From Natrinema hispanicum (GTDB taxonomy: Archaea > Halobacteriota > Halobacteria > Halobacteriales > Natrialbaceae), in the NCBI RefSeq assembly GCF_004217335.1, contig NZ_SHMP01000004.1, forward strand, positions 186,001-250,000: 64,000 bases of DNA, given 5' to 3'. Made by a program: the position numbers and the translations under genes. The notes under the pieces were generated by a model. It was not told the origin of the DNA. It saw only the letters and a list, made by a program, of their open reading frames with translations, and searched no databases. Shown here piece after piece: positions 22,750-60,528 of the stretch (its first letter is position 1; the number at the start of each line of letters is the position of its first letter).

Positions 22750-22900
22750 TGTCTTCCGTATCTACACCCAGTTCAGCAGCAATATTGAAACCCCGGTCGT
22801 CCTCATCGGAAAACACCGGGGAACGTCCACGTGAGGGGAGATCGCCGCACACCACGTTTGGTGTGTGTCAGTGGGTTTTGTTTGAATCGTAACATCACCA

Positions 22901-23338
22901 CCCACACCCCTCATTTCGAACGTAACCCCGTCCAAGCGGGAGGGGGAAGGTTACTGAATCAGTGAAAATTAGCATGCAGCCACGGCACCCTATTTAAACA
23001 GATGATATTTCAGAGGAGCTATTCACTAGAATGTACTTACACGTCTTCTAGGGCGTATTGTTGGCGTGCGTTTTTCCTTAACCAAAAAGTTTATATTAAT
23101 ATTATATAGTTGTAGTAGTATAGTAGTGTAGTAGTCTAGTTAGTGAGAGTGATCAAGATCACTTGCCAATAGCCAATTTGTTTCCGTCAGTCAAAAGCCA
23201 ATCTGAGGGCAAGCTGGAGCGGTTCTAATCCTATTTCGTGACAATTCTCACAACAAACAATCACTCTAATTTTGTCTGTTCGTTGGAGACCATGCTCTCT
23301 CAGAAGAGAAACGTTCGAAATGAGGGGTGTGTGTCCCC
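22901..23338. other. Candidate replication origin A (inverted ORB-like repeats around an AT-rich tract)
   Basis: CACACCCCTCATTTCGAACGT at about 22903-22923 (first 20 bases compared) is the reverse complement of ACGTTCGAAATGAGGGGTGT at 23311-23330, giving an inverted pair about 400 bp apart. Between them lies a very AT-rich stretch, 23060-23140, with TATTAATATTATATAG and low-complexity TAGTAG repeats. The right copy extends into GTGTGTCCCC. orc1/cdc6 begins at 23464, which is the usual haloarchaeal arrangement for an origin. Confidence 0.8.
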
Positions 23339-23463
23339 ACTCAAAACAGCCCAACGTCAGAGACGATCTCATGCTGAGGGCTTACTCCTTTATATGGCAG
23401 GTTACTACACAGTCTTACCGACCGACCGTTGAACACGTCTTCCAAAACATCCACTACTCACAA

Positions 23464-29239: not shown

Positions 29240-29425
29240 ATGTCAGACGAACTTCTCAATGTCCACGAGGAGGTCAAGGAGACGTTCCGGGATAGGATTC
29301 AAGACAACGACAGTATTTCTGACCCCGTGACGGATTCTATTATTAGTTTAACTGATGAGGAAATGACAGATTCCGGGGCTATTCAGAGCGTTGTTGAGGA
29401 GGCATTAGCAGATGAGGATTCATAA
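29240..29425 (+). CDS. Small acidic protein (61 aa) between nuclease and SMC-like ATPase
   Basis: A 61-residue acidic protein (MSDELLNVHEEVKETFRDRI...) predicted mostly helical. Its stop codon lies 14 bp inside the following SMC-like gene, so the two are translationally coupled. No family was recognised. Its position and size suggest an adaptor between ATPase and effector, as in three-component ABC/SMC defence systems; this is inference. Confidence 0.75.
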   Translation: MSDELLNVHEEVKETFRDRIQDNDSISDPVTDSIISLTDEEMTDSGAIQSVVEEALADEDS

Positions 29426-31898
29426 GATCCATATCCGAAACTTCCGTGGGATCCGTGACTTCGAGACAGAATTCCGACGAAGTGGGGCTCTGTTTTACGG
29501 ACCAAACGGGGCAGGGAAGAGTAGCGTTCTACAGTCAATCGAATTCCTACTGACAGGGTGTGTACGTGACTTAGAAGGATCTGGCACAGGGCGGCAGGAT
29601 CCGGAGAAGCATATACGTCACAGAGGTGTTGATCCAAGCGAGAGTTGGGTGACTGCCACGTTTTTGGATGGTGGTGAAGAGATCAAGATAAAACGTACTG
29701 TGGGTAATTCAGACCAGTTGGAAATCGTTTCGGACCATTCTACACTCCCGTCGAAATTGAAGACGCAGCAGACTGCGATGCGTCTCTCTCAGAATCGCCT
29801 ATCACGCGACGAGGTTCTGGATTTTGTTACGACTTCACCAGGTTCGCGTGGAGATGCTCTAAATGAGATTCTCAGGGTGCAGAACACAGAGGACAAACGG
29901 AAAGCGTTCGCAAAGGCCGTTAGTGACCAAAAAAGCCAGATAGACTCGTTACAGGATGATTTGAAGAAGCAGCGTGATGATTTCTATGATGCTCTTGAGG
30001 ACACGGTGTCAAACAAAACTGATAACCAGGTGATGGTTGATGCGGACTCTGATGCATTAGAGGTTATCAATACTCTACGCTCCGAATACGAGGTTAGTTC
30101 GTTATCCGAATTGGACGAAAAGGAGTTTACGGCAGGGATTACCAAACCGACCAGTTATTCGCGTACCCATCCGCTGGATCGAGGAGATCTTCGCTCAGAG
30201 TTTGAAGTACTTGAGGAATGGTTTAGCTGGGAAGGTGAGATGGCTCTTGCAGATCGTCAGAAGTTGCGGGATAAACTGGAGGAATTTGAACAGAATAGCG
30301 AACTTCGTCGGGATGTCCGAGCGCAGAATCTTTTGGAGCAAGGGGAAGAGCTTCTCACAGAATTTGAACCAGATTGTCCACTCTGCTTGTACACATGGGA
30401 CGATGCTACAGAACTGAGAGAACGAATTGAGAAACGGCAAGACAGTGCCAGCCACGCAGAAGAACTTCGGGGAGAGATCGACGATCTGAGGGATGAACAG
30501 CTTGAACGGATAAAAGAGGTACAGAACGCAGCCAACACATTGATCAAAGTATTCGAGGATGAAGATCCTGAGTCATACCCTCAGCCGATTGCACAATGGA
30601 CGCGAGAGTTGGGAACGATTGAGGCTGAGCTACGTGAGTATCGGAAACAGTTAGAGGCGGGTGATGTTTTGGAAGTCCCGTTTCCTTCGCTTGGGAGGGA
30701 GGAGTTAACTGCCAAACTGTTGACTGCCGACCTCGAAGAAGCTGTGGTAGAAATGAAGGCACAGTGGGAGAGTGAACAAGAGGGTAACGAGGGAATGAGC
30801 TCGTATCGTGTTTTGGCTGTCGCTTACGACCGATTCTCCCGCTATTCGGAAATTCAAGAAGACATCAAAAAAGCAGAGGAAGTTCTATCGACGCTAGAAA
30901 CGGTCAATAATGAATTCCGAACCGCGAGACAACGTCATTATGACAGGACTTTAGAGAAAATTCGAGAACGGTTCGAAGAAATCTACTGCGATCTTCACAC
31001 CGATGAAGAAGTGAAAGATTTCTCTGCGGATCTGAAGTCAACGGATCACGGAGTAAAATTCAGGACATCATTCCGAGACTCAGACACCCACCGCCCGAAT
31101 CTCGTCTACAGCGAAGGGCATCAGGATAGTATGGGGTTGGCGCTCTTCTTAGCGATGTGTGAGGTGGTAGGAGGTGAGGAACTTGAATTCCTCTTGCTTG
31201 ACGACGTTGTCACGTCGATTGATGCGGCACATCGCTCGGCTATCGCCAATCTCCTTGGGAACGATATTGGGGGAGATTTCCAATTGATAATGACGACGCA
31301 TGATAAGGTCTGGGCTCGACGTCTACGGACGACGAAATACATTCAGAACACCATTCACTTTGCCGATTGTAAGTTTCAGGCTGGCGTTCACCACAGCGAA
31401 GATATCGCTAACCCGTGGGGAATGATTGACTATTACTTAGATCGAAATGAGATTACTGCTGCGGCAGCTTGGGGACGAAAAACTGCTGAGTGGTTCTGTA
31501 GTAAGGGTTGCGAGCAGTTCGGCGCAGAACTGCCTTACGGAAATCGAGAGAATTTAGGATTACAGGACTACTTTGATGGGATTGTTGGCGAGCTAGAGTT
31601 TCTGTTAGAGCGTGGAGACGTGGATGATGAGACCATCTTCGGCGAGTCGGAACTTAGCGATACTGACGAAATGGTCGGTAATCTACGACGACTAAAAAAC
31701 GAACATATCTGGGGTCTAAACGAGAATATTCACTATAACGAAGAGTTCGAAGCAAGCTACTCTCCTGACGATCTCAGGGAAGACATAGCGGTATTTGATC
31801 AACTTTATAATGTCCTCCACTGTCCAAACTGTAATAATTGGCGTCAGCATGGACGAGATGGTGTCTACTGCTCGTGTGGCACAATCTGGAAAACATAG
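29412..31898 (+). CDS. SMC/Rad50-like ABC ATPase with C-terminal zinc ribbon
   Basis: An 828-aa ATPase. It has the N-terminal MRIHKIHIRNFRGI, Walker A YGPNGAGKSSVLQSIEF, coiled-coil arms (about 165-260 and 285-430), and a CPLC motif at the apex like a Rad50 zinc hook. A second coiled coil follows, then the ABC signature SEGHQDSMGLALFLAM, Walker B FLLLDDVVTSIDAAHR and an H-loop MTTHDK. After the ATPase core there is an additional 170-aa domain ending in a zinc ribbon (CPNC...CSC). The closest architecture is SMC-like subunits of defence systems such as Lamassu. It overlaps the 61-aa gene and is convergent with the HRAMP operon. Confidence 0.85.
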   Translation: MRIHKIHIRNFRGIRDFETEFRRSGALFYGPNGAGKSSVLQSIEFLLTGCVRDLEGSGTGRQDPEKHIRHRGVDPSESWVTATFLDGGEEIKIKRTVGNSDQLEIVSDHSTLPSKLKTQQTAMRLSQNRLSRDEVLDFVTTSPGSRGDALNEILRVQNTEDKRKAFAKAVSDQKSQIDSLQDDLKKQRDDFYDALEDTVSNKTDNQVMVDADSDALEVINTLRSEYEVSSLSELDEKEFTAGITKPTSYSRTHPLDRGDLRSEFEVLEEWFSWEGEMALADRQKLRDKLEEFEQNSELRRDVRAQNLLEQGEELLTEFEPDCPLCLYTWDDATELRERIEKRQDSASHAEELRGEIDDLRDEQLERIKEVQNAANTLIKVFEDEDPESYPQPIAQWTRELGTIEAELREYRKQLEAGDVLEVPFPSLGREELTAKLLTADLEEAVVEMKAQWESEQEGNEGMSSYRVLAVAYDRFSRYSEIQEDIKKAEEVLSTLETVNNEFRTARQRHYDRTLEKIRERFEEIYCDLHTDEEVKDFSADLKSTDHGVKFRTSFRDSDTHRPNLVYSEGHQDSMGLALFLAMCEVVGGEELEFLLLDDVVTSIDAAHRSAIANLLGNDIGGDFQLIMTTHDKVWARRLRTTKYIQNTIHFADCKFQAGVHHSEDIANPWGMIDYYLDRNEITAAAAWGRKTAEWFCSKGCEQFGAELPYGNRENLGLQDYFDGIVGELEFLLERGDVDDETIFGESELSDTDEMVGNLRRLKNEHIWGLNENIHYNEEFEASYSPDDLREDIAVFDQLYNVLHCPNCNNWRQHGRDGVYCSCGTIWKT

Positions 31899-31991: not shown

Positions 31992-33056
31992 CTACAACGC
32001 TTCGTCTACTTCCTGTAACGCGTCAATTGCTTGTTGGAGATGCTCTCGTAGCTCGTTGCTGACGCCCCCATCACTTGCTGCTTGGTCTGGACGATGACCG
32101 TCTGCACCACCAGACTGCACCTCAGACTCTGATTCAGGTGTGCCCCACGTTTCACTCCTGCCAAGTGATTCATCGTCTTGCCCAGTGACTGTATCGTGTG
32201 ATTGCTGTTCGTCACCCTCGCTCGTCGACGGTTCCTCTGCGGGTACTTTCTGTTCTGTTCGCGTGTCTTCCGCTGGTCGGCCACCGCGACTGAACGCGCC
32301 TAATGGGAAGTCGTACGCGTACGCTCGCTTGACCTTGTTGAACGTCGTGCGCCGCGAGATCCCGAGGACGTCCGTCACGGCACTCCGATCACAGCCACGT
32401 TCCAGTGCTTGCCTGACTTGCTCGTCTTCCATGCGTTGCAGCAACAGCTGCTGATCGTCCGGGATGTGGCCGCGCGCCGAGTTCTCGATCTGTTCAGTCA
32501 ACCCCCACTCTCCGGTTTCGACGTCTTTATCGACGATCTGCTGGTCGCGTGATTCGACCCGGTTGTCGAGCCCCATTAACACCCACAGCCGCTCACGAAT
32601 CGCTGACACGGACAATTCTAACGTCAACCCGGATGCGATCTCCCCGGTTCGCAGCGGCCCGTTTGCTGCGAGGAACTGCAGAACCTCGATGTCCTGCGGT
32701 AACAGGACACTTCGATCTTCGTCCGTGATCTCGACCGGCGAGTCAGCCGGCGTGGACTGCTGGTGCAGCCAACTGTGACACGGCCGGCACAGCACCGTCA
32801 AATTCTCCTTGTCGTGCTCGCCCATCCCGTCCGGATCTCTCTCAATGTGATGTACGTGCAGCGTCGCTAACCCGCCTTTCTTAGGTCCGCACCGGCCGCA
32901 CGCCTGGCAGCGATGCGAATAGTCATTCAACACGTCCTCACGTGTCTCCGGATCCACCGTCTCGTGACACTCACAGTGCCCATTCTTCTCGGCTGCATTC
33001 TTCTTCGTTGATTTGGTACTCGCTTCGTCGTGAGATCGTGACTCCGAGTCTGTCAT
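31992..33056 (-). CDS. HNH endonuclease with HTH segments (HRAMP-linked)
   Basis: A 354-aa protein. A polar N terminus carries CECHETV; the HNH core reads CQACGRCGPKKGG, then LHVHHIERDPDG, then NLTVLCRPCHSWLH, with all metal and catalytic His residues in place. A winged-helix-like region (LQFLAANGPLRTGEIASGL) and a second HTH (CDRSAVTDVLGISRRTTFNK) follow. The C-terminal 100 residues are acidic and disordered. It is the last gene on the minus strand of the HRAMP-like cluster, 120 bp after the DnaQ-like gene, and could be the cleavage subunit or an added module. Confidence 0.88.
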   Translation of the reverse strand: MTDSESRSHDEASTKSTKKNAAEKNGHCECHETVDPETREDVLNDYSHRCQACGRCGPKKGGLATLHVHHIERDPDGMGEHDKENLTVLCRPCHSWLHQQSTPADSPVEITDEDRSVLLPQDIEVLQFLAANGPLRTGEIASGLTLELSVSAIRERLWVLMGLDNRVESRDQQIVDKDVETGEWGLTEQIENSARGHIPDDQQLLLQRMEDEQVRQALERGCDRSAVTDVLGISRRTTFNKVKRAYAYDFPLGAFSRGGRPAEDTRTEQKVPAEEPSTSEGDEQQSHDTVTGQDDESLGRSETWGTPESESEVQSGGADGHRPDQAASDGGVSNELREHLQQAIDALQEVDEAL

Positions 33057-33175
33057 TCGTTGCTCTTGGAACCGCTCACTCGTCGAATTTCGATACGTCG
33101 CCGCGGTTCTGCCTGGGATATCGCTTCAATCTACAACCGCGTCCTGACTCGCGTGACTCGTGCGCTCGAATTCCG

Positions 33176-33844
33176 TCACCCCTCCGTCGTCGGCGTCAAT
33201 GACTTCACGTTGAAATCGGACTTACTGCAGTACCGTTCCGCAAGCCGGCCAAGCGATCGTGTCCGCAACACGTCCGCGACGTTATGCACCACGAGCTCCG
33301 CGAACCGGGCGTTCTCGTACGCCGTGACCGCCTCACTACTCTCCACGAACGGATCCACATCACCGTACCTCCCGTCGCACAACGCCTCGTACACGCCCGC
33401 CAAGTCGCCTCGCGGCTTATCCTCGTCACTAACGGTCGTGTTGAACCGCGACGTGACAAGCGGCATCACGTCCGCGTACGGCACGTCCGTGAACGGCCAG
33501 TCGATATCGTGGTGTGCGTACCGCGTCCGGAGAAACGGGACATCGAACCCGCCTTTCCACCGCTCCCCATTGTACGCGACCAGCAACACATCCTCATCAC
33601 GGAACCGCTCCTCGACGAACCCACTCACCGCCTCGAACAACGCTCGTTCAGACTCGTGCGTCGAGACTTTCACGTGCGACTCGACGCGATCCCGCACCGC
33701 AGCCTCCACGTCCGGCGCGGCCCGCCCGTCCGTCTGGACGAACACACGCACCCCAAGCGGCACCGCGAACCCGACTGTCGTCACCACATCATCCACGGCG
33801 AACCCTGTCGTCTCAATATCAAACGTCACCTGCTCCAACGCCAC
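33176..33844 (-). CDS. DnaQ-like DEDD 3'-5' exonuclease (HRAMP-linked)
   Basis: A 222-aa protein with a DEDD nuclease fold. ExoI is FDIETTG (D-x-E), ExoII is LVAYNGERWKGGFDVPFLRTR in part (N...D), and ExoIII is VVHNVADVLRTRSL (Asp). The GTG start at 33842-33844 overlaps the TAG of the upstream Cas5-like gene by one base. It should degrade DNA or RNA from a 3' end. HRAMP loci are reported with varied nucleases, which fits this position. Confidence 0.82.
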   Translation of the reverse strand: MALEQVTFDIETTGFAVDDVVTTVGFAVPLGVRVFVQTDGRAAPDVEAAVRDRVESHVKVSTHESERALFEAVSGFVEERFRDEDVLLVAYNGERWKGGFDVPFLRTRYAHHDIDWPFTDVPYADVMPLVTSRFNTTVSDEDKPRGDLAGVYEALCDGRYGDVDPFVESSEAVTAYENARFAELVVHNVADVLRTRSLGRLAERYCSKSDFNVKSLTPTTEG

Positions 33845-34869
33845 TACGCATCACCTCCAGCCTGTGCGGCAACACGCTCTGGAACCCGATCCGTGCCGGG
33901 CGGCCACACGCGCAACTCACCGAACCCGAACCTGGAGTGCGTCCCGACACGGGACACGCCGTTCACCGCCGTTCGAACCGGATCCGACCCGGCGTACGGC
34001 ACGAGCTGCCCGTGATCAACCACCGTCACGGCGTACGTCTCCCCTCCGTCGACGAACCGGGTCTCCCGGCACCGCAACTCGTCCTCGTCGACACCCCACC
34101 ACCACGGGATCGATTGGGAATCCCCACTCGGGTGCTCAGTCTTCAACACGTACGGCGTCACCAACTCAATCCAGCACGTCTCGCCAGTACCCTGCGCTGC
34201 TTCCAACCGTGAGAAATCCAGCGTCTCTACATCCACGAGCCGCGTCTCCGCAACCGACAGTTCCCCGAACCCGTAATTCCGAGCGCCACCAACCTGCACC
34301 CCGTCGAGAACCTCTTCAGACACTGGGAGGACGTCATCGCCAGGCCCGGCGTGCACGTAGCAATGCAGGAACCACGACACGGATCGCCGGTGATCCCGCA
34401 TCTCCTCCGGACGACCGAACCAGCACGTCGAATCGAACGCTACGCGACCGCCGTGGATCTGCAGGTCGTGCGTGTTATGCGCATCCCGCGGCCGCGAGTC
34501 CAACAACCACCGGTGCGCCGGGTCACGGAACATGAACAAATCCGCGTACGACTCCACCTCCGGGAGCGACTGGCCCAGCTTCCCCGCGTACCCGTCTTGG
34601 GATGCAGTCGGCGGGTACTCACCGTACTCACCAGGCACGAACACGCCGTGGCTTACACGCAACGCTCGAGCGGTCTGATCATCCACGCGGCGTGCGATCG
34701 CATTGAACAACGCGTTCCCAGTTACGAAGTATGGGTGCCCCAAGTACTGCCCGTCCAGTTCGAACAGCACTTGCTGCAGTCGCGTCACACCCACCACCTC
34801 TTCGTTTGAAACCACGGCCAGGCACACCGCTGCCCCCACACCCTGTTTCGAGTGCCATCGTATCGACAC
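33844..34869 (-). CDS. HRAMP Cas5-like RAMP protein
   Basis: A protein of up to 341 aa with two glycine-rich loops of RAMP type, GGARNYGFGEL (about residue 206) and THSRFGFGELRVW (about 310), consistent with two RRM-like domains. It is assigned as the diverged Cas5 of the haloarchaeal HRAMP system; Cas5 versus Cas6-like is not settled by eye. The start is uncertain: the frame opens at GTG 34869, but its first codons lie in the repeat at 34835-34860, and GTG at 34815 or 34797 just before the conserved TRLQQVLFELDG is more likely. The next gene overlaps by one base. Confidence 0.72.
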   Translation of the reverse strand: MSIRWHSKQGVGAAVCLAVVSNEEVVGVTRLQQVLFELDGQYLGHPYFVTGNALFNAIARRVDDQTARALRVSHGVFVPGEYGEYPPTASQDGYAGKLGQSLPEVESYADLFMFRDPAHRWLLDSRPRDAHNTHDLQIHGGRVAFDSTCWFGRPEEMRDHRRSVSWFLHCYVHAGPGDDVLPVSEEVLDGVQVGGARNYGFGELSVAETRLVDVETLDFSRLEAAQGTGETCWIELVTPYVLKTEHPSGDSQSIPWWWGVDEDELRCRETRFVDGGETYAVTVVDHGQLVPYAGSDPVRTAVNGVSRVGTHSRFGFGELRVWPPGTDRVPERVAAQAGGDA

Positions 34870-35105
34870 AGGCTCTTGCGCCAGAATCCCGGCACTTCAC
34901 TCGCAGCACCGGCTCGCCAATCACAAGACGACACCCACACCCTGTTTCGAGTGCCATCACCACGACAGCCCCGCTCATCACGAAATCCAGGCAGCAGGTC
35001 AGGATCACGCCAACCGTCACGCTGGACCGGCACCCACACCCTGTTTCGAGTGTCTTTCCAACGCCGCCGCGTCCAGTCTCGACACACCCCGTTTCCAGTG
35101 CCACG
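34835..35105 (-). CRISPR. CRISPR-like mini-array inside the HRAMP operon (4 repeats)
   Basis: On the minus strand four copies of a ~24-nt repeat with core CTCGAAACAGGGTGTGGG occur at 35081-35105 (diverged: CTGGAAACGGGGTGTG), 35033-35057, 34934-34958 and 34835-34859. The three best copies are exactly 99 bp apart; the diverged one is 48 bp away. The intervening sequences (about 74, 74 and 23 nt) are unrelated to each other. The array fills the only long gap (about 340 bp) in an otherwise overlapping operon. Unit length is not that of a normal haloarchaeal CRISPR, so this is CRISPR-like rather than a typical array. The 99-bp period also keeps one reading frame (MALETGCG), but no credible protein results. 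Confidence 0.6.
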
Positions 35106-35211
35106 ACCGGCACACTGGCTCACCCGCCATTCTTCAGGCGGCCGCGGCGTACACGACCAGCCACGGCACACCGCCGTCGCACCGACACGACCCGACACGT
35201 CGCCGCGACGC

Positions 35212-36048
35212 CTACTCACGACGACCACCTCCCGACCCAGCAACGCCACGTCCAATCTGTGAGTTCGGCGCTGGGTCGAACTCTGTGGTGAACTCCTCGA
35301 TGAACTGCAGCGCCGACGACCACGACCGCACCCGGCGAAGCTGCGCATCCAGCACGCGCCATAACCGCGACGCATCCACATCGAACGGGTGTTCCGGCAG
35401 CCGCGCCCACGTATCAGCGAACGACCTAGCCGGCACGTCACCAAGTCGCGCCGCCGGCCGCCCATCCGGGTTACCCGTTACATGCAGCGCGAACGTCGGC
35501 GTCGCCAACACCGTCCTGTGCGGTACGATCTCCGGCGCACAGTCACGAGGCGTCACCGCGAGGAACAGTTCGTCGAACTCGAACCCAGCTCGGTAATTAT
35601 CGAGCAGCGCCGCCGCAAGCAACGTATGGTACTTCAACGACGTGTACGGGTAGTACGGCGACTCGCTGAACACCGCCGGCACATCACTCGACAACCACGC
35701 CGCGTGCAGTACTTCTGCATCATCACTCCCGACCAGCTCGTGTAACGCAGCATCGACATCGTCCACTGCCCCGGTCGTCGACGCGGCCTGTCCAGTCAGC
35801 AGCGACAAGCGGAACCACGACTGGTGTGCGTCCATCGTCTGCTCAGGCTCACCGCGCGGCCGACTCAACAACGCCGCGCCCGCATCCGCGCCTTGAGGAA
35901 CCGGCTCGTTCACCCGGACACCACGGAACATCTCCTCCGCGTGCTCGTGCGACCGCGACCGCGCCTTATGCACATCATGCCGATACACTGCCACCATCGG
36001 ATCCACACCCGACTCCGCAGCGTCACTCGACACAGACGCGTCACTCAT
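35212..36048 (-). CDS. HRAMP conserved uncharacterised protein
   Basis: A 278-aa protein starting at ATG 36046-36048 (MSDASVSSDAAE). It overlaps the end of the upstream 87-aa gene by 8 bp. It is alpha-helical in the middle (about 95-180, with SLKYHTLLAAALLDNY) and has a YRHDVHKARSRSHEH segment near residue 22 with clustered His and Arg. I see no metal or nuclease motif. Its place between the Cas7-like and Cas5-like genes fits the uncharacterised conserved subunit reported for HRAMP. A longer frame to 36144 has no conserved start and is not used. Confidence 0.7.
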   Translation of the reverse strand: MSDASVSSDAAESGVDPMVAVYRHDVHKARSRSHEHAEEMFRGVRVNEPVPQGADAGAALLSRPRGEPEQTMDAHQSWFRLSLLTGQAASTTGAVDDVDAALHELVGSDDAEVLHAAWLSSDVPAVFSESPYYPYTSLKYHTLLAAALLDNYRAGFEFDELFLAVTPRDCAPEIVPHRTVLATPTFALHVTGNPDGRPAARLGDVPARSFADTWARLPEHPFDVDASRLWRVLDAQLRRVRSWSSALQFIEEFTTEFDPAPNSQIGRGVAGSGGGRRE

Positions 36049-36304
36049 CCCGATCACCCGGATCAGCATCGTGATCGTCAGCCGCCTCTTGTTCCGTTGC
36101 TGTTCGCAACTCTGTCGCCGGTGGTTGCAACTCATCCAACACACCCGACTCAGACTCTATCTCACCAGCCACCGCGTCCTCATCATCAACTTCTTGCGCC
36201 TCCAATTCAGTAGCCGTCCGCAATTCCGTTGCTGGCGGCTGCAACTCGTCGAGTCCATCACACGCGTCTTCACGCTCATCATCACCGCCATCAGGATCCG
36301 TCAC
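36041..36304 (-). CDS. Acidic 87-aa protein with an internal 16-residue repeat
   Basis: An 87-aa very acidic protein containing LDELQPPATELRTATE twice, about 36 residues apart, separated by acidic linkers. Start ATG 36302-36304 overlaps the stop of the Cas7-like gene, and its own stop overlaps the next start. The overlaps support real translation. The repeated motif looks like a short linear binding peptide; a role in assembling the complex is a guess. Confidence 0.65.
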   Translation of the reverse strand: MTDPDGGDDEREDACDGLDELQPPATELRTATELEAQEVDDEDAVAGEIESESGVLDELQPPATELRTATEQEAADDHDADPGDRDE

Positions 36305-37284
36305 GCCGACTCACCTCCCAACACTGCATCCGAATCATCGCCAGGCACCGGCACGTCCACATCACGAGCCGCCACACGCGCCTGCAACGCCGTCACGAAC
36401 GCCGGGCGACACTCCGACGCCCACACCTCATCCTTCTCATCCATCGCCGACGTCGCCGCCTGCGCCCGGTTAAACACGCGCCGCACTTCCTGCTCGGTGT
36501 ACAGTGGATTGATCACCCACACGTCAGCGATCCCAGCACCAAAATTCCGAGCACCCCCGAGCTGGAACGCAAACTCATCACTGTGCGCATCTAGGAACGA
36601 CACTGCTTCCAGCAGTAGCCCGACGAACTCCGGCTTCAACTCGCGGAACGTCAACTTCCACGTCCCCTCAACGTTCCCGAGCACGTCTCGATCCGCCTGC
36701 CGAAGCGGCTTCCCGCCGTCCTCATCGTTCCGCGACCGGACCTGATTCGACACTTGCCGGTAATGCGCCTCCGCCTCACCATCAAGGACATCCACGTTCC
36801 GACGAATCGGAGAAAACGACACCGGACGACGCAGCAGTTTCCCCGGCTGATCACCGAACCCGCCGAACACGTCGTACACCACGCACCCGTCGTCGTGATC
36901 GTCGAGACAGGTACCTTTCTCATGGTACCCAGACTCCAAGTCCCGCTCGTACACGTTCGCACGCATGTAATCCGCATTCGACTCCCCCGGATGGCACGCC
37001 GTCGCGCCAGCAGCTTGGAGGACCTGTTCACAGCCATGGCGCAACCAGCCGCTCAACGTGAACGGCGAAATCTGCCCCTCGATCTGATTCATCGGATCAT
37101 CCGCCTCGTACCGATCCGACGACGCATGGTGTCTATCCGTCACGATGCCGTCCCCAGGGGACAACAGATCGATTTCGAGTCCAACGTACACGTCCGGCAA
37201 CAGCATCTCCTCAAGCGATCGCGGGAGGTTCAACTCGATGTCCAAATGCGACGCATCCAGCTCCGGCTTATCGCTCGACGTCAT
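36301..37284 (-). CDS. HRAMP Cas7-like RAMP protein
   Basis: A 327-aa protein. The N-terminal EIDLLSPGDGI strand leads to FTLSGWLRHGCEQVL, which corresponds to the GSSLKGALR-type helix of Cas7/Csm3 proteins. The C-terminal part has the glycine-rich GGARNFGAGIADVWVI, typical of RAMPs. A thumb-like insertion between them holds FGGFGDQPGKLLRRPVSF and charged segments. It overlaps its neighbours at ATGA on both sides. Assigned as diverged Cas7 of HRAMP, expected to coat a guide RNA. Assignment rests on these motifs and gene order. Confidence 0.75.
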   Translation of the reverse strand: MTSSDKPELDASHLDIELNLPRSLEEMLLPDVYVGLEIDLLSPGDGIVTDRHHASSDRYEADDPMNQIEGQISPFTLSGWLRHGCEQVLQAAGATACHPGESNADYMRANVYERDLESGYHEKGTCLDDHDDGCVVYDVFGGFGDQPGKLLRRPVSFSPIRRNVDVLDGEAEAHYRQVSNQVRSRNDEDGGKPLRQADRDVLGNVEGTWKLTFRELKPEFVGLLLEAVSFLDAHSDEFAFQLGGARNFGAGIADVWVINPLYTEQEVRRVFNRAQAATSAMDEKDEVWASECRPAFVTALQARVAARDVDVPVPGDDSDAVLGGESA

Positions 37285-37721
37285 CGTCCCACCTCGTGCT
37301 CCGCGTTCAGAACGTCTGGTTTCACTTGGCCGTCAGCAGTCGCACACCACCGAATCGACTTCGTCGCCGCCGCGCTCACCCCAAGCACCTCAGGAGCAAG
37401 CAAAACCGGCCATGATGATTGTGTTGCTCCGTCAGAGCACCATCCAACACGGCCCTCGACGAGCAATTCGCGCACGCCGAGTGTGAACACCGACGAGTAC
37501 TCGTCCCGATCGGCACCGCACAGGACGTGTCCGATCTGAAACACTACTTCGCCAGCCGGCCGAAAAACGTACGCTACAACCGTCTCGCCCTCACGAAGAA
37601 AAGAGCCGCACACCAAACATGTCGCGGCCCCTTCCCCGAGCGAAACACATTCTATTTGTGATATTTCTTCAGTTAGCTGGGCACCGACAGTCTCTTGATT
37701 TATCGGGTTTGATTCTTCCAT
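37281..37721 (-). CDS. First gene of HRAMP operon, Cys-containing 146-aa protein
   Basis: A 146-aa protein with CLVCGSFLREGE and a later IGHVLCGADRDEYSS, giving a possible zinc site (C-x2-C and H-x2-C) as in treble-clef-like proteins. The C-terminal third is mixed beta/alpha. It ends in ATGA overlapping the Cas7-like gene. No family was recognised. As the first gene behind the operator region it is transcribed with the HRAMP operon. Confidence 0.7.
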   Translation of the reverse strand: MEESNPINQETVGAQLTEEISQIECVSLGEGAATCLVCGSFLREGETVVAYVFRPAGEVVFQIGHVLCGADRDEYSSVFTLGVRELLVEGRVGWCSDGATQSSWPVLLAPEVLGVSAAATKSIRWCATADGQVKPDVLNAEHEVGR

Positions 37722-37917
37722 GGGTTCTCACGTCCCGTGGGAAACCCAGTCCGAGTGTCCCTAGCACTCGGGCGTTTTCGCTGAATCCACGCCCTCCGGG
37801 ACCAGGCTTCCACACCATCTCCTATATTGTGTAATGGTATAAACGTTCCCCATCTCCTTCGAAGGAGATGGGTAGTAACCCATCACCTACATAGGTGATG
37901 TCTACAAATCGATTACT
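37722..37917. promoter_or_regulatory. Divergent HRAMP/HTH control region with paired palindromes
   Basis: Two palindromes with 9-bp arms, CCCATCTCC (37849-37872) and CATCACCTA (37881-37900), have centres exactly 30 bp apart and share the half-site CCATCNCCT. A third half-site CCATCTCCT is at 37814-37822. The minus-strand TATA-like box CGTTTATACC is at about 37836-37845, so the palindromes sit just upstream of it. The transcribed leader of about 90 nt has a 7-bp hairpin (CCGAGTG/CACTCGG, 37751-37771) and a GGGTT/AACCC stem next to the start codon. The winged HTH protein coded at 37918 is the natural candidate to bind here. Confidence 0.65.
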
Positions 37918-38310: not shown

Positions 38311-41300
38311 ATGACTGACGAGCAAACCAAAGAGATTCGGCGGCGTTTAGATGAGGAACTCTCCCTGGATGAGTTTGAACGCGATTACCGATCCACTGGG
38401 GAGGCAGCGACACAGTTCTTTCAGGACCTCTTCGTTCAGGTGCTCAACTTCGAAGAAACGACTTCGCCACTGGGTGACGCAACTTGGCAGGATATTCCTG
38501 TTCACGAGTGGCCGAACACAGCCCGGGCAAACGCTGCTCGGCTCTTCGCCAAATCGGGGAACTTCCGCGTCATCTACGTCGAACTGGAGAAGCTGACTCG
38601 GACAGCTGAACGGAACGCTGTCCAGAGCCTCACGCGGTCGGACAGAACAAGCGGATGGGCCATTGACGGCTCCTTCCTGACTGTATTTCACGCGCCGGAC
38701 GAGGACATCTGGCACCTCGTCACTCCCTATGAGGAAGGCACGGACGACATCACTACTGGTCGCCCTGTGCTGCGCAGGTACACGCTCGGTGAAGGCGAGA
38801 CCCACCGCACCGTTGCAAATGCGCTGTCGAGTATGGACGCTAGCAAGGGTCGGCTGGCAGAGCGCATCGACGAGGCGTTCCGAGTCAAGCCCGTTACCGA
38901 GGACTTCTACGAGAACTACAAGAACGCCTTCGACACGCTCAGTAAGGAACTTCGCCGGAAAGGTCTAGAGATCGAGGATGCAGACCGGTACGCGCATACG
39001 ACGCTCAATCGGTTGATGTTCTTCTACTACCTCCAGAAGAAGGGCTGGATCGGTGACCGGAAGGACTTCGTCCGCTGGTTCCACGAGCAGTACGAGAAAT
39101 CCGACGAGGAGGATGTATTCCACGAAAAGTGGCTCTCGGCGCTGTTCTTCGAGGGTATGAACAGCCCGAAAGGTGGAAATATCAACGTGGATCTTCCGTC
39201 CGATGTCAGGTCTGCCATTGCTGGACTCCCATATATGAACGGTGGGCTCTTCCAGCCGACTGAGGAGGACGAACGCGACACGTTCCTGTCTGACTCCGCG
39301 CTAAAGTCGGTGATCGAAGAGTTCCTCGAACAGTACAACTTCACGGTTACCGAGGAGAGCCCCTACGACATCGATGTCGCCGTCGATCCGGCGATGCTCG
39401 GGAAGATTTACGAGTCCCTGATTGCCGAGCAGGAACGCGGTGAGGCAGGCATCTTCTACACGCCTCGTGTCGAGGTTGATCTGATGTGTCGCATGGCTCT
39501 GTACGAGCAGTTCTGCGACCATGCCAATGATCTCGATGCTGAAGGGAAACAGCGGATTGTCGAGTTCATTTTCAGCGAGCCACAGGACTGGGACGCAGAG
39601 AGTGCCGGTGAAACAGAGCAACTGGAGAACATCCTCCACAAACTGCGTATCGTTGATCCCGCCTGTGGTAGTGGTGCGTTCCTGGTGGGAATGAAGCAAG
39701 TGGTCACCGAACTGTACCGGAAGCTCGGTACGACCCCGGACTATCACCTCAAAGAGCAGATAATCAACGAGAACCTGTACGGCGTCGATATCAAAGACTG
39801 GGCGGTCCGGGTTGCTGAGTTCCGGCTTTGGCTTTCGCTCGTTGAGGGCGAGGAGCAACTCCCAGACCAGCGCCCAGTGCTACCGAATTTCTCCTTCAAG
39901 CTCAAGGTTGGTGACAGCCTGATTCAGAAGCTCGATGGAGAATTCGTTTCACTGGATACGCTCACGCGAACGCTCGATGGAGATACTGCTGGCCTCCTCA
40001 CGGAACTGAAAGAGCTGAAGCGTGAACACTTCGAAGGTGAGACTGACCGAACTCAAGAGATCGAAGAGAAGCAGGTGGAACTCCTCAAAAACCATGTCGA
40101 CGGTCTCATCGACAATCTCTCAAAGGACGGTTCTCAACAGACTCTCTTCGGAGACACAAAGGACGACCAAATCGATGACGACGTCCAAGAGCGTATCGAA
40201 GAGCTCAAAGAAACTCGTGACGCGATTGATGAGGCTGGGGCGGCTGGGTTCTTCATGTGGGACATCGACTTCTCCGACGTGATGGTCGAGGGTGGATTCG
40301 ACATTGTCATAGGAAATCCACCATACGTCCGTCAGGAAGACATCATTGACCAAGGAATTCATCCAGAACGTCTTGATGAGATGGATGGTGGAGAGGTCAA
40401 GAAGTTGAAAAAGGAATACAAGAATGACCTCGTCCAGTATGTCGAGGAAACATTTGACATCAGCGCTTACAAGCGAAGCGACATTTATGTCTATTTCTAT
40501 TTCAAAGGTCTGGAAGTTCTCCGAGAGAATGGAACACTCTCATACATCACCTCTAATTCCTGGCTTGACATCGGGTACGGAAAGCGCCTTCAACAGGCTC
40601 TATTAGAGAAAGCAAGTCTCTCGACGGTGATGGGAAATATCAGCGAGAAAGCATTCGAAGATGCTGACGTAAATGCCTACATCACGATGGCAAATAAGAG
40701 CCAGAATGGCATTCTTGCTGGTGAGACAAAGTTCACGAGAATCAATTGTCCCTATGTGGACCTCAATTACGCGTCTGCCTTCAAGTCGATCTTCACTACG
40801 AACGAAGCAGATACTGAAGAGTTACTGTTCAATGAAGAGCCAGCAAGGGTCTATGAAGAGGGAGATATCCGAACACTCACGTTTTCCCATGCAGGCCTGT
40901 GGCGACTCGGGGGTGGTTCTACCCGAGATCTAGATGACGATTCTGGGCCTGTTTATTCGGAAGAATCCGGTTTTGGGCCAACCAAAGTTATAGCAAACCA
41001 CGATCTATCTCAAAATCTTCAACTACCGACCGGTTCCTATAGCATGGGTCTATGGGGACGGTTTGTTGATGCGCCAACTCTCTACTTTGAAATCTGGCGG
41101 GACGCTGGCGATCAGTTCACGACCATCCGCGATCTCACAGACGATGGGGGCGATCTAACTCGCGGAGTCACGAGTGGTGCGAACAAGTATTTCTTTGTTC
41201 CACGACCCGGAGAGGACAACAAGTACTTTACAGCAGACTATAACGGTGATACCGGGGAGCTTGTTCTCACGCACAAGGACAGTAATCGAACAGCTCGGAT

Positions 41301-42198
41301 TGAGCCAGAATACTGGATGCGGCCGCTAAAAGAGATTCCGGAGGACTACCAGGACCAGTTTGATTGCCGTTATGAAACAGATGATGGGACTGAGATGGTC
41401 CCCAATCTCGTGCTAGTAAAGAATCGAGAAATCAAAACTAGCCCGATTGAGCCAGCCCACCTGAGTAGTGTTTGGATTCGGATTGACGATGACAAAGCAA
41501 CGCTTGAGCAAGACGGAAGGAATGCGCTAGACTACGTTGAGCTTGGAGAGGCCGAAATCTGGGGGCGGGATTCTGACAAGAGTCTCTCCTCCCGGACTAC
41601 ATTCAATAGTCGAGATCCGTGGTATATGCAGCCCACCGTGTCCGACCCCTATATCCTACTAACTCGCTACGTGAACGCAAAGTACCAGTTCCATTTCAAT
41701 CCGTGTGCATTCCCAGTAGCAGATAACTTCTACTATCTCTCCACCTCTGAGGAGTTCGATCCAGCCTACCTTGCCGGTTACCTCAACTCGACGCTTGGCT
41801 GGTTTATGGCTGAAATTTCGAGTCGAAGCTGGACCAACGCTCTCAAATTCGATAAGACGGAGTTCATGGAACTTCCAGTCGTGGACGCCAAGGAACAAAC
41901 ACAGTCTACTGCCGGTGAGGCCGTTGAGAATCTAATGGAGCGCGATCTTGAGGACGTCTTTGTAGAGTTAGGTGGGTACAACCCAAGTGACGTGACGATT
42001 GAGAGTGTGAAGGAGGATCGAGTTGATCTCGACACCCCCATCTTTAATGAGTTAGATCTTACCGACAAGCAGCGGGAACGTCTCTACAAAGAGATGGTGA
42101 CTCTTGTCCGAGATCGACTTATGCGACAGCCCGATGAGAATCCATCGTTGTGTGAGACAATCACTGAACACAACTCGCAATACGACTACTCCCGCTGA
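38311..42198 (+). CDS. Eco57I-type adenine-specific DNA methyltransferase / type IIG-like
   Basis: A 1295-aa protein. The N-terminal 250 residues include FRVIYVELEKLTRTAERN, a possible but unproven nuclease-like segment. The methyltransferase core has motif I DPACGSGAFLVG (near 450) and the catalytic motif IV IGNPPYVRQED (near 670), as in N6-adenine enzymes. The C-terminal half contains a target-recognition-like region (LWRLGGGSTRDL... YLAGYLNSTLGWFMAE). It is followed on the same strand by a PLD-SNF2 helicase, with a TBP gene in reverse between. The pairing recalls methylase-helicase pairs in DISARM and BREX, but drmA, drmB, pglZ and brxC are absent here. Confidence 0.88.
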   Translation: MTDEQTKEIRRRLDEELSLDEFERDYRSTGEAATQFFQDLFVQVLNFEETTSPLGDATWQDIPVHEWPNTARANAARLFAKSGNFRVIYVELEKLTRTAERNAVQSLTRSDRTSGWAIDGSFLTVFHAPDEDIWHLVTPYEEGTDDITTGRPVLRRYTLGEGETHRTVANALSSMDASKGRLAERIDEAFRVKPVTEDFYENYKNAFDTLSKELRRKGLEIEDADRYAHTTLNRLMFFYYLQKKGWIGDRKDFVRWFHEQYEKSDEEDVFHEKWLSALFFEGMNSPKGGNINVDLPSDVRSAIAGLPYMNGGLFQPTEEDERDTFLSDSALKSVIEEFLEQYNFTVTEESPYDIDVAVDPAMLGKIYESLIAEQERGEAGIFYTPRVEVDLMCRMALYEQFCDHANDLDAEGKQRIVEFIFSEPQDWDAESAGETEQLENILHKLRIVDPACGSGAFLVGMKQVVTELYRKLGTTPDYHLKEQIINENLYGVDIKDWAVRVAEFRLWLSLVEGEEQLPDQRPVLPNFSFKLKVGDSLIQKLDGEFVSLDTLTRTLDGDTAGLLTELKELKREHFEGETDRTQEIEEKQVELLKNHVDGLIDNLSKDGSQQTLFGDTKDDQIDDDVQERIEELKETRDAIDEAGAAGFFMWDIDFSDVMVEGGFDIVIGNPPYVRQEDIIDQGIHPERLDEMDGGEVKKLKKEYKNDLVQYVEETFDISAYKRSDIYVYFYFKGLEVLRENGTLSYITSNSWLDIGYGKRLQQALLEKASLSTVMGNISEKAFEDADVNAYITMANKSQNGILAGETKFTRINCPYVDLNYASAFKSIFTTNEADTEELLFNEEPARVYEEGDIRTLTFSHAGLWRLGGGSTRDLDDDSGPVYSEESGFGPTKVIANHDLSQNLQLPTGSYSMGLWGRFVDAPTLYFEIWRDAGDQFTTIRDLTDDGGDLTRGVTSGANKYFFVPRPGEDNKYFTADYNGDTGELVLTHKDSNRTARIEPEYWMRPLKEIPEDYQDQFDCRYETDDGTEMVPNLVLVKNREIKTSPIEPAHLSSVWIRIDDDKATLEQDGRNALDYVELGEAEIWGRDSDKSLSSRTTFNSRDPWYMQPTVSDPYILLTRYVNAKYQFHFNPCAFPVADNFYYLSTSEEFDPAYLAGYLNSTLGWFMAEISSRSWTNALKFDKTEFMELPVVDAKEQTQSTAGEAVENLMERDLEDVFVELGGYNPSDVTIESVKEDRVDLDTPIFNELDLTDKQRERLYKEMVTLVRDRLMRQPDENPSLCETITEHNSQYDYSR

Positions 42199-42203
42199 TC
42201 GGT

Positions 42204-42746
42204 TTAGAAACTATTTTCGAGAATATCGCGCAAGGATTGGAGGACTGAACAAGCGACTTCTTGTTTGGCTGTACCGACAACTAACACCTTTCCGCTTGAG
42301 AAAATCAGAAGAGTTGCCTCATACTCCGGGGATCGGTATACAAGTCCCGGAAATTGTTCAGGCTCATACTCTGTGTACTCTAAACCAAGACGAACAGCGA
42401 GTGTTTCCAGCTCCAATCCTTGGTTCACTTCATCCATAAAAACAGCCGTCTTCTCCTCAAATTCAACGTCACCAGTCTCAAAGCCGATGTCATCAAATAT
42501 TTGGAGCAGTTGGTTCACTGCCTCGGTCAATTCTTCGTGTCCTAGTGCTCCACGAATTTGAAACGACCCAGTCCGATAAATACTGAAGGCGGGACTATTC
42601 TCCCCGAATTTTACGGTTACAATCCCTGTGCTTTGAAAATTTACGTCTAGACTCTCCCCGACTTCATTTCTAATCTCATCAACAAGAGTTTCCAAGTCTA
42701 TCTCCTTGCCTAAGGAGCCACTTCCCATTATACTTACAATCTTCAT
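42204..42746 (-). CDS. Divergent TATA-binding protein (TFIID-like)
   Basis: A 180-aa protein with the archaeal TBP C-terminal repeat: LAVRLGLEYTEYEPEQFPGL, VYRSPEYEATLLIFSSGKVL, then VVGTAKQE. The N-terminal repeat is strongly diverged (SIMGSGSLGKEIDLETLVDE, then FSIYRTGSFQIRGA) and lacks EPEQFPGLVYR. General TBPs are about 185 aa with two matched repeats, so the size fits. It lies convergent to the methyltransferase (5-bp gap) and divergent from the helicase gene. It may be a promoter-selective TBP for the island; haloarchaea often have several TBPs. Confidence 0.85.
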   Translation of the reverse strand: MKIVSIMGSGSLGKEIDLETLVDEIRNEVGESLDVNFQSTGIVTVKFGENSPAFSIYRTGSFQIRGALGHEELTEAVNQLLQIFDDIGFETGDVEFEEKTAVFMDEVNQGLELETLAVRLGLEYTEYEPEQFPGLVYRSPEYEATLLIFSSGKVLVVGTAKQEVACSVLQSLRDILENSF

Positions 42747-42905
42747 TACTTTTGAATCCTACTGGCTAAGACAAATGCTCGTCGTGCTACTATGAAACAT
42801 TTTTGAGGTGGCTAGTTCCAGTGTAGTGTATGTCTCCGTCACTCTCACTCACAGTTTATGATACCAAGCGTATAAACGGTGCCTTCTCCCGAGAAATTCT
42901 GAACC

Positions 42906-45900
42906 ATGAGTAACGACAATTCAATCGGGATCATCGACAACCGTCGCTACTCCCACCTTGATGAGGTCCTAAAGTCAGGGCTCGAAAGCCAGGGTGTTGA
43001 CCGGATTCGAATTGCTGTCGGATACCTCTACATGAGCGGCTTGAAGCGACTCCGCCCGGAGCTGGATAAATTCCTTGACAACGGGGGGACACTCCAAGTT
43101 CTAATGGGGAATCCAGACCAGCAAGGGTTGGACGAACTCATAGAGGCTCACCAGAATCTCCGTCTCACCGGCACGAAATTCAAGCAGTCACAGAACGTCA
43201 AGTGGAGTGAGCGACCGGAAATTCGTGCCGAAACTGCGAACAATTACTCGAATCAACTGCTCTACGAAAACCCCACTGCGGAGAATCAGGCCTTCTTCAC
43301 GAAGCTGATTGACTGGCTGGAACAGGGACGTATCCAGCCTAAGTTGTACCTTCAGGAGCGGTTCCACGCGAAGGCGTACCTCTTCGAGAAAGACGAAGGA
43401 GACATCTTTACGCCCAAGGATGTCGGCGTCGTCGGTTCGTCGAACCTCAGCCTCAGCGGCCTCCACAGCAATACGGAACTCAACGCGCCGGTCTACAACG
43501 AGAAAGTCACGCAACTGAAGGAGTGGTTCGATGACTTGTGGGACGACGCCGTTGAGTTTGACGCGGATCTGCTGGAAGCGTTCGAAGACTCCTGGGTCTC
43601 GAACAACCCCGGACACATCTCAACGGACGACGAACCACCTGCACTTCCGGGTGATTCACTCCCAGACGACACGACTGAGACACTCCGAGAGGTCAGCAGT
43701 GGTACTGGTCTCCCTGCACCGTATCTAGTGTACGCGAAGATTCTCTATGAGCTCTACAAGGAGACGCTGGAGACTGCTGAGGACTATCTTCAGTCATTTG
43801 ACGTGTACGATGACCTCTACGAGTTCCAGAAGTGGGCAGTAAACCGTGGGATCAGAATCGCCAACAAGTACGATGGTGTCCTCGTTTCCGACGTCGTCGG
43901 GATGGGGAAGACGTTCGTCGGCCTCGGCCTCCTCGAACACTTCCATGCCCGAAATCGCCTCCGTGGCAACAAGGGGAAGATGCTGATCATCTCTCCGAAA
44001 CATCTCAAGCCGATGTGGGAGCGGATGGTCAACAAGCAGTACAACTTCAACGCGGAGGTTATCAGTCTGGGGATGGTGTCGAAGGAGGATTTCCACGAGA
44101 CGCTCTTGGAAGAGCACGACGACACGACGGTGTGTCTCGTAGATGAGGCGCATCACTTCCGGAATGATGATACGCATCGTTACGACAATCTGCAGTCGTT
44201 CCTTCCGACGGTTAATCAGACGATTCTCCTGACTGCGACGCCGTATACGAAGAGCGCGTGGGACGTCTACAATCAGATCAAGTTGTTCCACATCGAGGAT
44301 ATCACGCCGATTCCGATTACGCCGCCGAACCTCTATGACTTCACGCAAATGGCAGAGAACGATGAGACGGATCTCTCAAACCTTCTGAGCCACGTGATGG
44401 TGCGTCGGACTCGCCAGGACATCATCGACCAATATGGTGAGGAGGATGAGGATGGCCGGCTCTACCTCCAGATGGCTGGTGAATGTCGGTACCTCCCAGA
44501 TCGGCACTTACAGACGGTGGATTACAATCTGCACGAAACGTATTCGACGGCTGACGGCGTCAATAATTCACTCTATGACGCGATTGTGGAGACGTTAGAG
44601 GACCTCACGTTCGCTCGGTACTCGCTAGGTCAAGAGGAGTACCTGAAAATAGAGTACGCGAATCAGGACCCGTATCAGAATCTCTCCTCGATGGGGAAGA
44701 GCATTCGTGGGTTGATGAAGTCCAACCTTCTGAAACGGTTGGAAAGCAGTGTTCACGCCTTCTACACATCGCTCACCCGGATGCTTCGGAGTTACCGGAT
44801 GTTCCGGGATCTCCTCGACGAAGGAACGGTTGCTGTCGGGAGCGATGTATCTGAACTCATCAACAGTGGAGAGCAGATCGACTACATCCTTGATGAGATC
44901 GACGAAATGGTCGAGGAGGGGGAGTATGCGGCGTATCAAACGGAGGCCTTCCATCTTGATGAGCTGAAACGCGATCTTGAGACTGATATCCAACTCCTGG
45001 CAGATCTACAAGCCACGCTGGAACCGTTCCATCAGGACATCCAGCATGACTACACGATGGATGATAAGGTCGAACAGCTTCGGCAGCTTCTCGGGAATCT
45101 CCGTGTGGGATCCCATGATCTTCTTCAGCGCGGCGACCGTGCTGAGAAGTTGATCGTCTTCACGCAGTTTACTGACACGGTGGAGTATCTGGAAGCTGCG
45201 TTTGAGCAGTTCCAAGATCGGGGACTACTCTCCGATGACGTTCGGTTTGCCAGTGCCACAAGTGACACTTCGAACGTGGAGAGTATCATCCAACGCTTCG
45301 CTCCTGAGGCAAATGATGCACGGGACGAAATCGACCCGAGTGACGAGATAGATGTCCTATTTGCGACCGACGTGGCAGGGGAGGGGGTCAATCTTCAGGA
45401 TGCGAATTTAGTCATCAACTACGACCTGCACTGGAATCCCCTGCGTCTAATTCAGCGAATCGGTCGTGTTGACCGCCTCGGAAGTGGGCACGACGACATC
45501 TACGCGCTCAACTTCCTACCGGAAACGGAACTTGAAGAGGAACTCGGTATCGTTGACCGCGTCGAGTCACGTGTCCAAGAGATCAGTAGTGTTCTCGGTG
45601 AAGACGGGGAGATACTGAGTCCGGAAGATAACGTGAACCGGTCGTACATGGAGGATATCTACGCTGAAGAGGATATCGAGAAAGTCGAAGATGACGTGAA
45701 TGAGATCATTGGGAGCGACGATCTTATTGGTCCAGCAAGTAGTCTTCAGGACCTCAAACAGAAGTCTCCGGATCTACTCGACTGGTTGGATGACCGCGAC
45801 GGAATTCGAAGTGCGATGGAGTGGGATCGAGAGTACGACGGCATCGTCATTGTCTATCGGCAAGGAGACTACACGACCCCGTACCTCGTTACGTTCCCAA

Positions 45901-58969: not shown

Positions 58970-58971
58970 TG

Positions 58972-60519: not shown

Positions 60520-60528
60520 GGGTGTCGG

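What the first reader, a model, noticed from the sequence alone, without database searches (positions are those of the whole stretch)
31992..37721. Complete HRAMP-type operon with two nucleases
Seven minus-strand genes with overlapping starts and stops: a Cys-containing 146-aa protein, a Cas7-like RAMP (GGARNFGAGI), an acidic 87-aa repeat protein, an uncharacterised 278-aa protein, a Cas5-like RAMP with two G-loops, a DnaQ-like DEDD nuclease and an HNH nuclease. The composition matches HRAMP. Two different nucleases and the added 87-aa protein may define a subtype.
Basis: partly seen in the sequence, partly recalled or inferred. Interest (0 to 1): 0.75.

Follow-up and report, generated by a model that had tools for sequence, protein, structure and literature searches.

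The report
CRISPR-like operon with origin-like boxes
This salt-loving archaeon carries a known but poorly understood CRISPR-derived gene cluster, and hidden between two of its genes is a row of short DNA boxes that resemble the start signals of archaeal DNA replication, hinting that the system may watch for or aim at replicating invaders.

Summary
The operon is real and is HRAMP, an already described array-less, type III-derived CRISPR relative of haloarchaea. Cas7 is supported by predicted fold, Cas5 by Cmr3 profiles. The "uncharacterised 278-aa protein" folds like a miniature Cas10 (Z 12.8). Two nucleases are the norm (48 of 63 relatives) and the 87-aa protein is sporadic, so neither marks a subtype.

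A fast-evolving leader ORF, translationally coupled to Cas5, carries four copies of a 22-nt box. Of 39 deduplicated relatives with such a gap (80 nt or more), 24 carry 67 boxes (0.18 expected), all on the operon strand and in all three reading frames. Codon positions diverge about equally, while box cores change several-fold less than their surroundings. The boxes match the published archaeal origin recognition box (ORB), as does a box at the Cas5 start in most gapped loci.

Selection thus seems to act on the nucleic acid, not the peptide. Most likely the boxes tie HRAMP to Orc1/Cdc6-type origins; whether as DNA sites or RNA guides is open.

The parts
37281..37721 (-). C146, Cys-containing small protein (zinc-finger-like by eye), present in all 63 complete type A loci
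   Evidence: ORF; homologues in 63 of 63 type A loci with Cas7, U310 and Cas5; no Pfam family
36301..37284 (-). Cas7-like RAMP protein
   Evidence: Foldseek top rows all CRISPR Cas7 chains, VIA Z 11.4; Csm3 profile in 10 of 31 relatives
36041..36304 (-). 87-aa acidic ORF with two LDELQPPATELRTA repeats; sporadic
   Evidence: motif in 8 of 63 type A loci
35212..36048 (-). U310, miniature Cas10-like large subunit with RHDxHK motif, no palm GGDD
   Evidence: AlphaFold model pLDDT 87; VIA Z 12.8 to Csm1; RHDxHK in 33 of 34
34785..35219 (-). Leader ORF (144 aa) overlapping U310's stop and ending in the TGA that overlaps the Cas5 start
   Evidence: coupled frame stop-free in 37 of 39 gapped loci, other frames 3 and 1 of 39; codon positions diverge equally
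35081..35102 (-). ORB-like box 1
35033..35054 (-). ORB-like box 2
34934..34955 (-). ORB-like box 3
34835..34856 (-). ORB-like box 4
34796..34815 (-). degenerate terminal box before the Cas5 start (7 mismatches to the common ORB here; 33 of 48 gapped loci have at most 5)
33844..34788 (-). Cas5-like RAMP protein (Cmr3-like), start GTG 34788
   Evidence: Cmr3 profile in 28 of 30 relatives; conserved start
33176..33844 (-). DEDD/DnaQ-like exonuclease
   Evidence: RNase_H_2 3.6e-6
31992..33056 (-). HNH nuclease, with a weak match to a Fis-type regulator region downstream of the HNH
   Evidence: PF01844 2e-8; IscB HNH part 5e-8 and PrpR part 0.011

Best explanation
The locus is a HRAMP system: a Cas7 backbone, a Cmr3-like Cas5 and a miniature Cas10 form a stripped-down type III-like complex without cyclic-oligoadenylate synthesis, served by a small Cys-containing protein and by DEDD and HNH nucleases. 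Between the mini-cas10 and cas5 genes sits a leader ORF that must stay open so that ribosomes reach cas5. Its peptide is not visibly constrained, but it carries a row of nucleotide-conserved boxes that match archaeal origin recognition boxes. Most likely these boxes work as nucleic acid and tie HRAMP to Orc1/Cdc6-type replication origins, those of invading plasmids and viruses above all. They could be DNA sites bound or titrated by Orc1/Cdc6 proteins (my estimate 0.30) or RNA carried by the complex towards origins (0.20). Shown: gene content, folds, open coupling, box conservation and the ORB match. Inferred: binding, the link to invaders, RNA in the complex, and cleavage.
For: Cas7 fold; Cmr3 and Csm3 profiles; U310 like Csm1 at Z 12.8, next unrelated row Z 3.5. 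67 boxes in 24 of 39 gapped loci against 0.18 expected, none on the other strand, frames 43/18/6. Coupled frame open in 37 of 39. Equal codon-position divergence in the leader ORF; box cores 9 of 198 sites changed against 252 of 1403 around them. 58 of 67 internal boxes within one mismatch of the first half of the published common ORB; 33 of 48 terminal boxes within five of its 20 positions, shuffles average 9.2 (ORB pattern). Close matches elsewhere lie at orc1/cdc6 genes in 15 of 17 chosen clusters.
Against: Boxes all point one way, and orc1/cdc6 lies in only 6 of 100 loci, so this is no origin. 15 of 39 gapped loci have no internal box, and 12 of 60 type A loci have no gap at all. Internal boxes have a shorter spacer before the G-run than the common ORB. 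The G-run of the terminal box can be a ribosome-binding site. The window's terminal box is poor (7 mismatches). No match between the window's gap and an invader. Foldseek alone gives U310 no significant match (best E 0.65).
Confidence: 0.5

Rival explanations
1. The boxes are CRISPR-like RNA repeats. CUNGAAAC resembles the 8-nt 5' handle of type III crRNAs (recalled, from no call), so HRAMP would carve guide RNAs from its own messenger, with the variable stretches as spacers. The ORB resemblance would be coincidental.
For: Only on the operon strand, next to genes for an RNA-binding type III-like complex; variable stretches between boxes.
Against: Conservation runs on through RGGGTGTG after GAAAC instead of ending there; spacings are uneven, 24-291 nt; no protospacer for the window's gap; the box tolerates the same substitutions as the published ORB.
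Confidence: 0.2
2. The boxes act in translation: they are repeated ribosome-binding or reinitiation signals that help ribosomes through the leader ORF to cas5, or they encode short peptide repeats such as TGNGVC.
For: Leader ORF is coupled to cas5 in 37 of 39 loci; the terminal box ends 6-12 nt before the start in loci that match well; WIN and L035 share peptide stretches such as PGF and LCR.
Against: Boxes in three frames and equal codon-position change argue against peptides; the first half of the box is not ribosome-binding-like; the gap is dispensable in 12 type A and all 15 type B loci.
Confidence: 0.2
3. Ordinary HRAMP; the boxes are a neutral or selfish micro-repeat that multiplies at this junction and has no role in the system.
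For: Gap absent in 12 of 60 type A and all 15 type B loci; recurring unit lengths 33, 48, 99, 142.
Against: Box cores stay conserved while surroundings diverge; 46 of 53 exact copies in 391 genomes are in HRAMP or HRAMP-derived loci; reduced loci keep boxes and a nuclease after losing core genes.
Confidence: 0.1

Closest known systems
HRAMP, haloarchaeal RAMP (passages of PMC8730458 and PMC12669027 read; the original paper, doi 10.1093/femsle/fnz079, is not held, and is recalled)
   Same: Diverged Cas5 and Cas7 homologues closest to type III, additional nucleases including HNH, no CRISPR array, haloarchaea
   Different: The passages read mention neither a Cas10-like subunit nor boxes in the operon; here both are found
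Type III (Csm/Cmr) effector complex
   Same: Cas7, Cmr3-like Cas5 and a Cas10-like fold
   Different: U310 is 278 aa instead of about 700 or more, without a palm GGDD; no Cas11, Cas6, CRISPR array or Cas1 found
Archaeal origin recognition box (PMC4164010 Table 1, PMC4153887, PMC3528665; passages read)
   Same: Core CA[CG]T[GT]GAAA[CT][AG] followed by a G-run; the same positions vary
   Different: All on one strand inside a coding operon, mostly no orc1/cdc6 nearby, shorter spacer before the G-run in internal boxes

Membership tests
HRAMP | Diverged Cas7 homologue | tested here: met
HRAMP | Diverged Cas5 homologue | tested here: met
   Cmr3 profile in 28 of 30 relatives; fold not predicted
HRAMP | Associated nuclease, often HNH | tested here: met
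   HNH and DEDD; both in 48 of 63 type A loci
HRAMP | No CRISPR array or adaptation genes | tested here: met
   no Cas1 in the host genome; no classical array among window repeats; other cas genes not searched genome-wide
HRAMP | Found in haloarchaea | tested here: met
   103 of 391 genomes of the class; named hits all haloarchaea
Cas10 large subunit (U310) | Cas10/Csm1-like fold | tested here: met
   VIA Z 12.8, 46 of 47 rows type III large subunits; Foldseek E only 0.65
Cas10 large subunit (U310) | HD motif | tested here: met
   RHDxHK in 33 of 34; correspondence to the Cas10 HD motif by position, inferred
Cas10 large subunit (U310) | Palm GGDD | tested here: not met
   one GGDE-like string in 34, at a C-terminal tail
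Origin recognition box / replication origin | Match to ORB consensus | tested here: met
   (half motif for internal boxes, 20-mer within five mismatches for 33 of 48 terminal boxes)
Origin recognition box / replication origin | Inverted boxes | tested here: not met
   67 of 67 on the operon strand, none on the other
Origin recognition box / replication origin | Adjacent orc1/cdc6 gene | tested here: not met
   in 6 of 100 locus sequences, the window among them, about 10 kb away
Origin recognition box / replication origin | Bound by Orc1/Cdc6 | not testable with these tools
   needs gel shift or ChIP
CRISPR array | Near-identical repeats with spacers of near-constant length | tested here: not met
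   start-to-start distances 24 to 291 nt, mostly 33, 48, 99, 142
CRISPR array | Spacers matching invaders | tested here: inconclusive
   only the window's gap was searched; no informative match

The most novel reading that the evidence does not exclude
HRAMP is not truly array-less: its own messenger carries built-in guide RNAs that imitate origin recognition boxes, and the Cas7-Cas5-mini-Cas10 complex with its nucleases uses them to find and cut the replication origins of invading plasmids and viruses. It would be an innate, origin-directed descendant of CRISPR.
Probability: 0.18. Interest if true: 0.95.

Novelty: new variant of a known kind. Interest (0 to 1): 0.68.

Why it matters
HRAMP has been described as a CRISPR derivative without an array and with an unknown mechanism. 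A nucleotide-conserved box array inside its operon is a candidate for the missing nucleic-acid partner, and its ORB-like sequence makes one specific question testable: does HRAMP sense or target replication initiation? The mini-Cas10 assignment would name the conserved subunit that the passages I read call uncharacterised, and points to a minimal type III complex.

Tried and rejected
Classical CRISPR array: rejected, because spacing is uneven and the conserved box runs on after GAAAC. Protein repeat (TGNGVC): rejected as the main constraint, because boxes lie in three frames and codon positions change equally. RNA hairpin: not supported; 6 boxes carry G at position 5 with G18 unchanged, positions 6 and 17 never pair, and positions 3-20 never vary and so say nothing; no Rfam match up to E 0.5 in 33500-37800. 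Replication origin: rejected, see membership table. Protospacers for the window's gap: no informative match in plasmids, none in phages. In 391 genomes the best matches outside the window are mostly other HRAMP loci, and the remaining short ones (for instance G233 at E 1.1e-7, G149 at 7e-6) were not followed to a target. The gaps of other loci were not searched this way. Five viral-contig hits to the box pattern were isolated matches with no cdc6 or HRAMP relative nearby. Solved-structure searches by sequence gave nothing for Cas5 and nothing useful for Cas7. Avoidance of self ORBs by the boxes was looked at by eye in 19 genomes and shows no clear pattern: some hosts have near matches (G158, one mismatch), others none.

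A second repeated motif, CGTGGTGGG, occurs in 11 of 39 gaps; in shuffles the most widespread 9-mer reached 5 to 12 loci, so I make nothing of it.

Rows dropped: three type A loci without a recognised Cas5 start (L041, L063, L165); 18 of the 100 locus sequences removed as duplicates by Cas7 DNA. L149, L152 and L163 stay in the counts although their gaps are nearly identical, so box counts include close relatives. The 17 origin clusters were picked from the listing because they formed clusters. Two further stretches scanned in that call (L194, L195) were fetched for another question and hold no box and no cdc6. Of the 63 complete type A loci, 15 lack one nuclease by this tblastn, which can miss diverged ones.
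Full report
The operon. The seven minus-strand ORFs exist as described. HNH and RNase H-fold domains are found by Pfam. Relatives of the Cas7-like protein occur in 103 of 391 sampled genomes of the class. With the window that is 100 sequences, 82 after removing duplicates. Two architectures appear: type A (67 loci: C146, Cas7, optional acidic repeat ORF, U310, optional gap, Cas5, DEDD, HNH) and type B (15 loci: Cas7, U310, Cas5, tightly packed; none has a DEDD or HNH match and 2 have a weak C146 match). Among 63 type A loci with Cas7, U310 and Cas5, 48 have both nucleases, 10 only DEDD, 5 only HNH, and all have C146; the LDEL..LRTA motif of the 87-aa protein was found in 8. The proposed subtype features are therefore the common state and a sporadic state.

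Family assignment. 28 of 30 Cas5 relatives match a Cmr3 profile of PADLOC (best 2e-8) and 10 of 31 Cas7 relatives match a Csm3 profile (best 6e-7). The Cas7 model is of moderate confidence (pLDDT 66), yet the top Foldseek rows are Cas7 chains of types VII, IV and III, with VIA Z up to 11.4. U310 gave a good model (pLDDT 87). Foldseek alone is not significant (best E 0.65), but its eleven top rows are all from type III complexes or Csm1 itself. The structural realignment gives Z 12.8 to Csm1 over 226 of 274 residues; 46 of 47 rows are type III large subunits (chain identity partly inferred from the entries) and the next row is Z 3.5. RHDxHK, near the N-terminus like the HDxGK of Cas10 (recalled), is found in 33 of 34 sequences; there is no GGDD in the palm region. 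I read U310 as a miniature Cas10. Two papers with relevant passages describe HRAMP: one speaks of Cas5 and Cas7 homologues with nucleases and uncharacterized proteins (PMC8730458, passages), the other calls it array-less and type III-derived, most often with HNH or PD-(D/E)xK nucleases (PMC12669027, passages). The host genome has no Cas1 match.

The hidden feature. U310's stop and the conserved Cas5 start are 423 nt apart in the window. This stretch holds three direct repeats 99 nt apart and a fourth copy; with up to three mismatches the 20-nt motif occurs only at these four places in the whole genome. A Cas5 start could be assigned in 60 type A and 15 type B loci. In 12 type A and all 15 type B loci U310 and Cas5 overlap by a few bases; 48 type A loci have a gap of 40 nt or more. 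Among the 39 with 80 nt or more, 24 carry at least one internal box and 67 boxes in all, against 0.18 expected from dinucleotide shuffles, none on the other strand. In those 39 the frame whose TGA overlaps the Cas5 start is free of stops across the gap in 37, the other two frames in 3 and 1. So the gap is a leader ORF coupled to cas5.

What is selected. In the leader ORF, substitutions between relatives are about equal at the three codon positions (L152-L154: 20, 17, 11, against 11, 5, 37 in Cas5; the other informative pairs of the 18 compared are similar, with a modest third-position excess in a few such as L157-L068). Boxes sit in all three frames of the ORF (43, 18, 6), with some close relatives among the loci. 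In five pairs pooled, box cores differ at 9 of 198 sites and the rest of the gap at 252 of 1403 (Fisher 1e-7). The exact pattern CACTNGAAAYRGGGTGTG occurs 53 times in 26 of 391 genomes: 42 in gaps of known loci, 2 in a second, partial HRAMP locus, 2 in reduced HRAMP-derived loci and 7 elsewhere, of which 2 lie near orc1/cdc6. The element is thus close to a signature of HRAMP, conserved as nucleic acid rather than as peptide.

ORB resemblance. Allowing two mismatches, CACTGGAAACGGGGTGTG hits 232 of 391 genomes, while the reversed pattern hits few. In 15 of 17 hit clusters that I chose, an orc1/cdc6 gene lies alongside and boxes point both ways in most: true origins. The common ORB of Ori-Finder 2 is TCCA[CG]T[TG]GAAA[TC][GA]AAGGGGT (PMC4164010, Table 1, passages), and an archaeal consensus is quoted in PMC4153887 (passage). 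Internal HRAMP boxes are within one mismatch of its first half in 58 of 67 cases and vary at the same places. In addition a terminal box lies shortly before the Cas5 start in most gapped loci, even in gaps of 40-49 nt: 33 of 48 are within five mismatches of the 20-nt ORB and end 6-12 nt before the start; shuffles average 9.2 mismatches, and loci without a gap average 8.6 (type A) and 10.0 (type B). Part of that match, the G-run, can be a ribosome-binding site; the first half is not of that kind. Against an origin: uniform orientation, and orc1/cdc6 in only 6 of 100 loci. The host's own CAC-type ORBs differ from its boxes.

How it may work. Shown: a type III-like protein set, a coupled leader ORF, and conserved ORB-like boxes. 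Inferred: that Orc1/Cdc6 proteins or origins are the partner. As DNA, boxes before cas5 could be bound by initiator proteins and freed when an invader's origins titrate them, raising Cas5 and the nucleases. As RNA, box-bearing transcripts could guide or anchor the complex. Nothing here separates the two. A search for papers with origin recognition box, CRISPR and archaea found nine; going by titles and opening lines none links ORBs to HRAMP, and of eleven papers with the word HRAMP only two are on this subject by title. The original HRAMP paper could not be read, so whether it noted the boxes or the Cas10 kinship is unknown to me.

Noticed in passing
window 56231-63165: Long Argonaute (Piwi domain) with a neighbouring RNase_H_2 plus helix-hairpin-helix protein and a DEAD/MrfA-type helicase.
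   Followed up: no
window 29412-31898, 38311-46412, 49693-52167: Dense defence island: SMC/Lamassu-like ATPase, type IIG/PglX-like methylase, SNF2-PLD helicase and a GmrSD enzyme.
   Followed up: no
window 22900-24696: An orc1/cdc6 gene (TIGR02928, 1e-66) with an inverted box pair of ORB look just before it (22900-22923 and 23311-23334).
   Followed up: partly
L198 3350-5426, L203 3595-5177, L142 6384-9496: Reduced HRAMP loci: core genes lost (Cas5 and most of U310; Cas7 kept only in L142) while C146, boxed leader or its DNA and a nuclease-like gene remain. Decay or a minimal form.
   Followed up: partly
L143:11226-11966, L196:10450-11169: A gene of about 240 aa takes the place of HNH in some loci; no Pfam match.
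   Followed up: no
L070 about 6976-7222: The gap of this locus also holds palindromic GATTGTAACAATC-type repeats with an 84-nt period.
   Followed up: no
window 34946-34973: A 28-nt piece reaching into box 3 recurs at 89-96% in several genomes outside HRAMP loci; cause not worked out.
   Followed up: no
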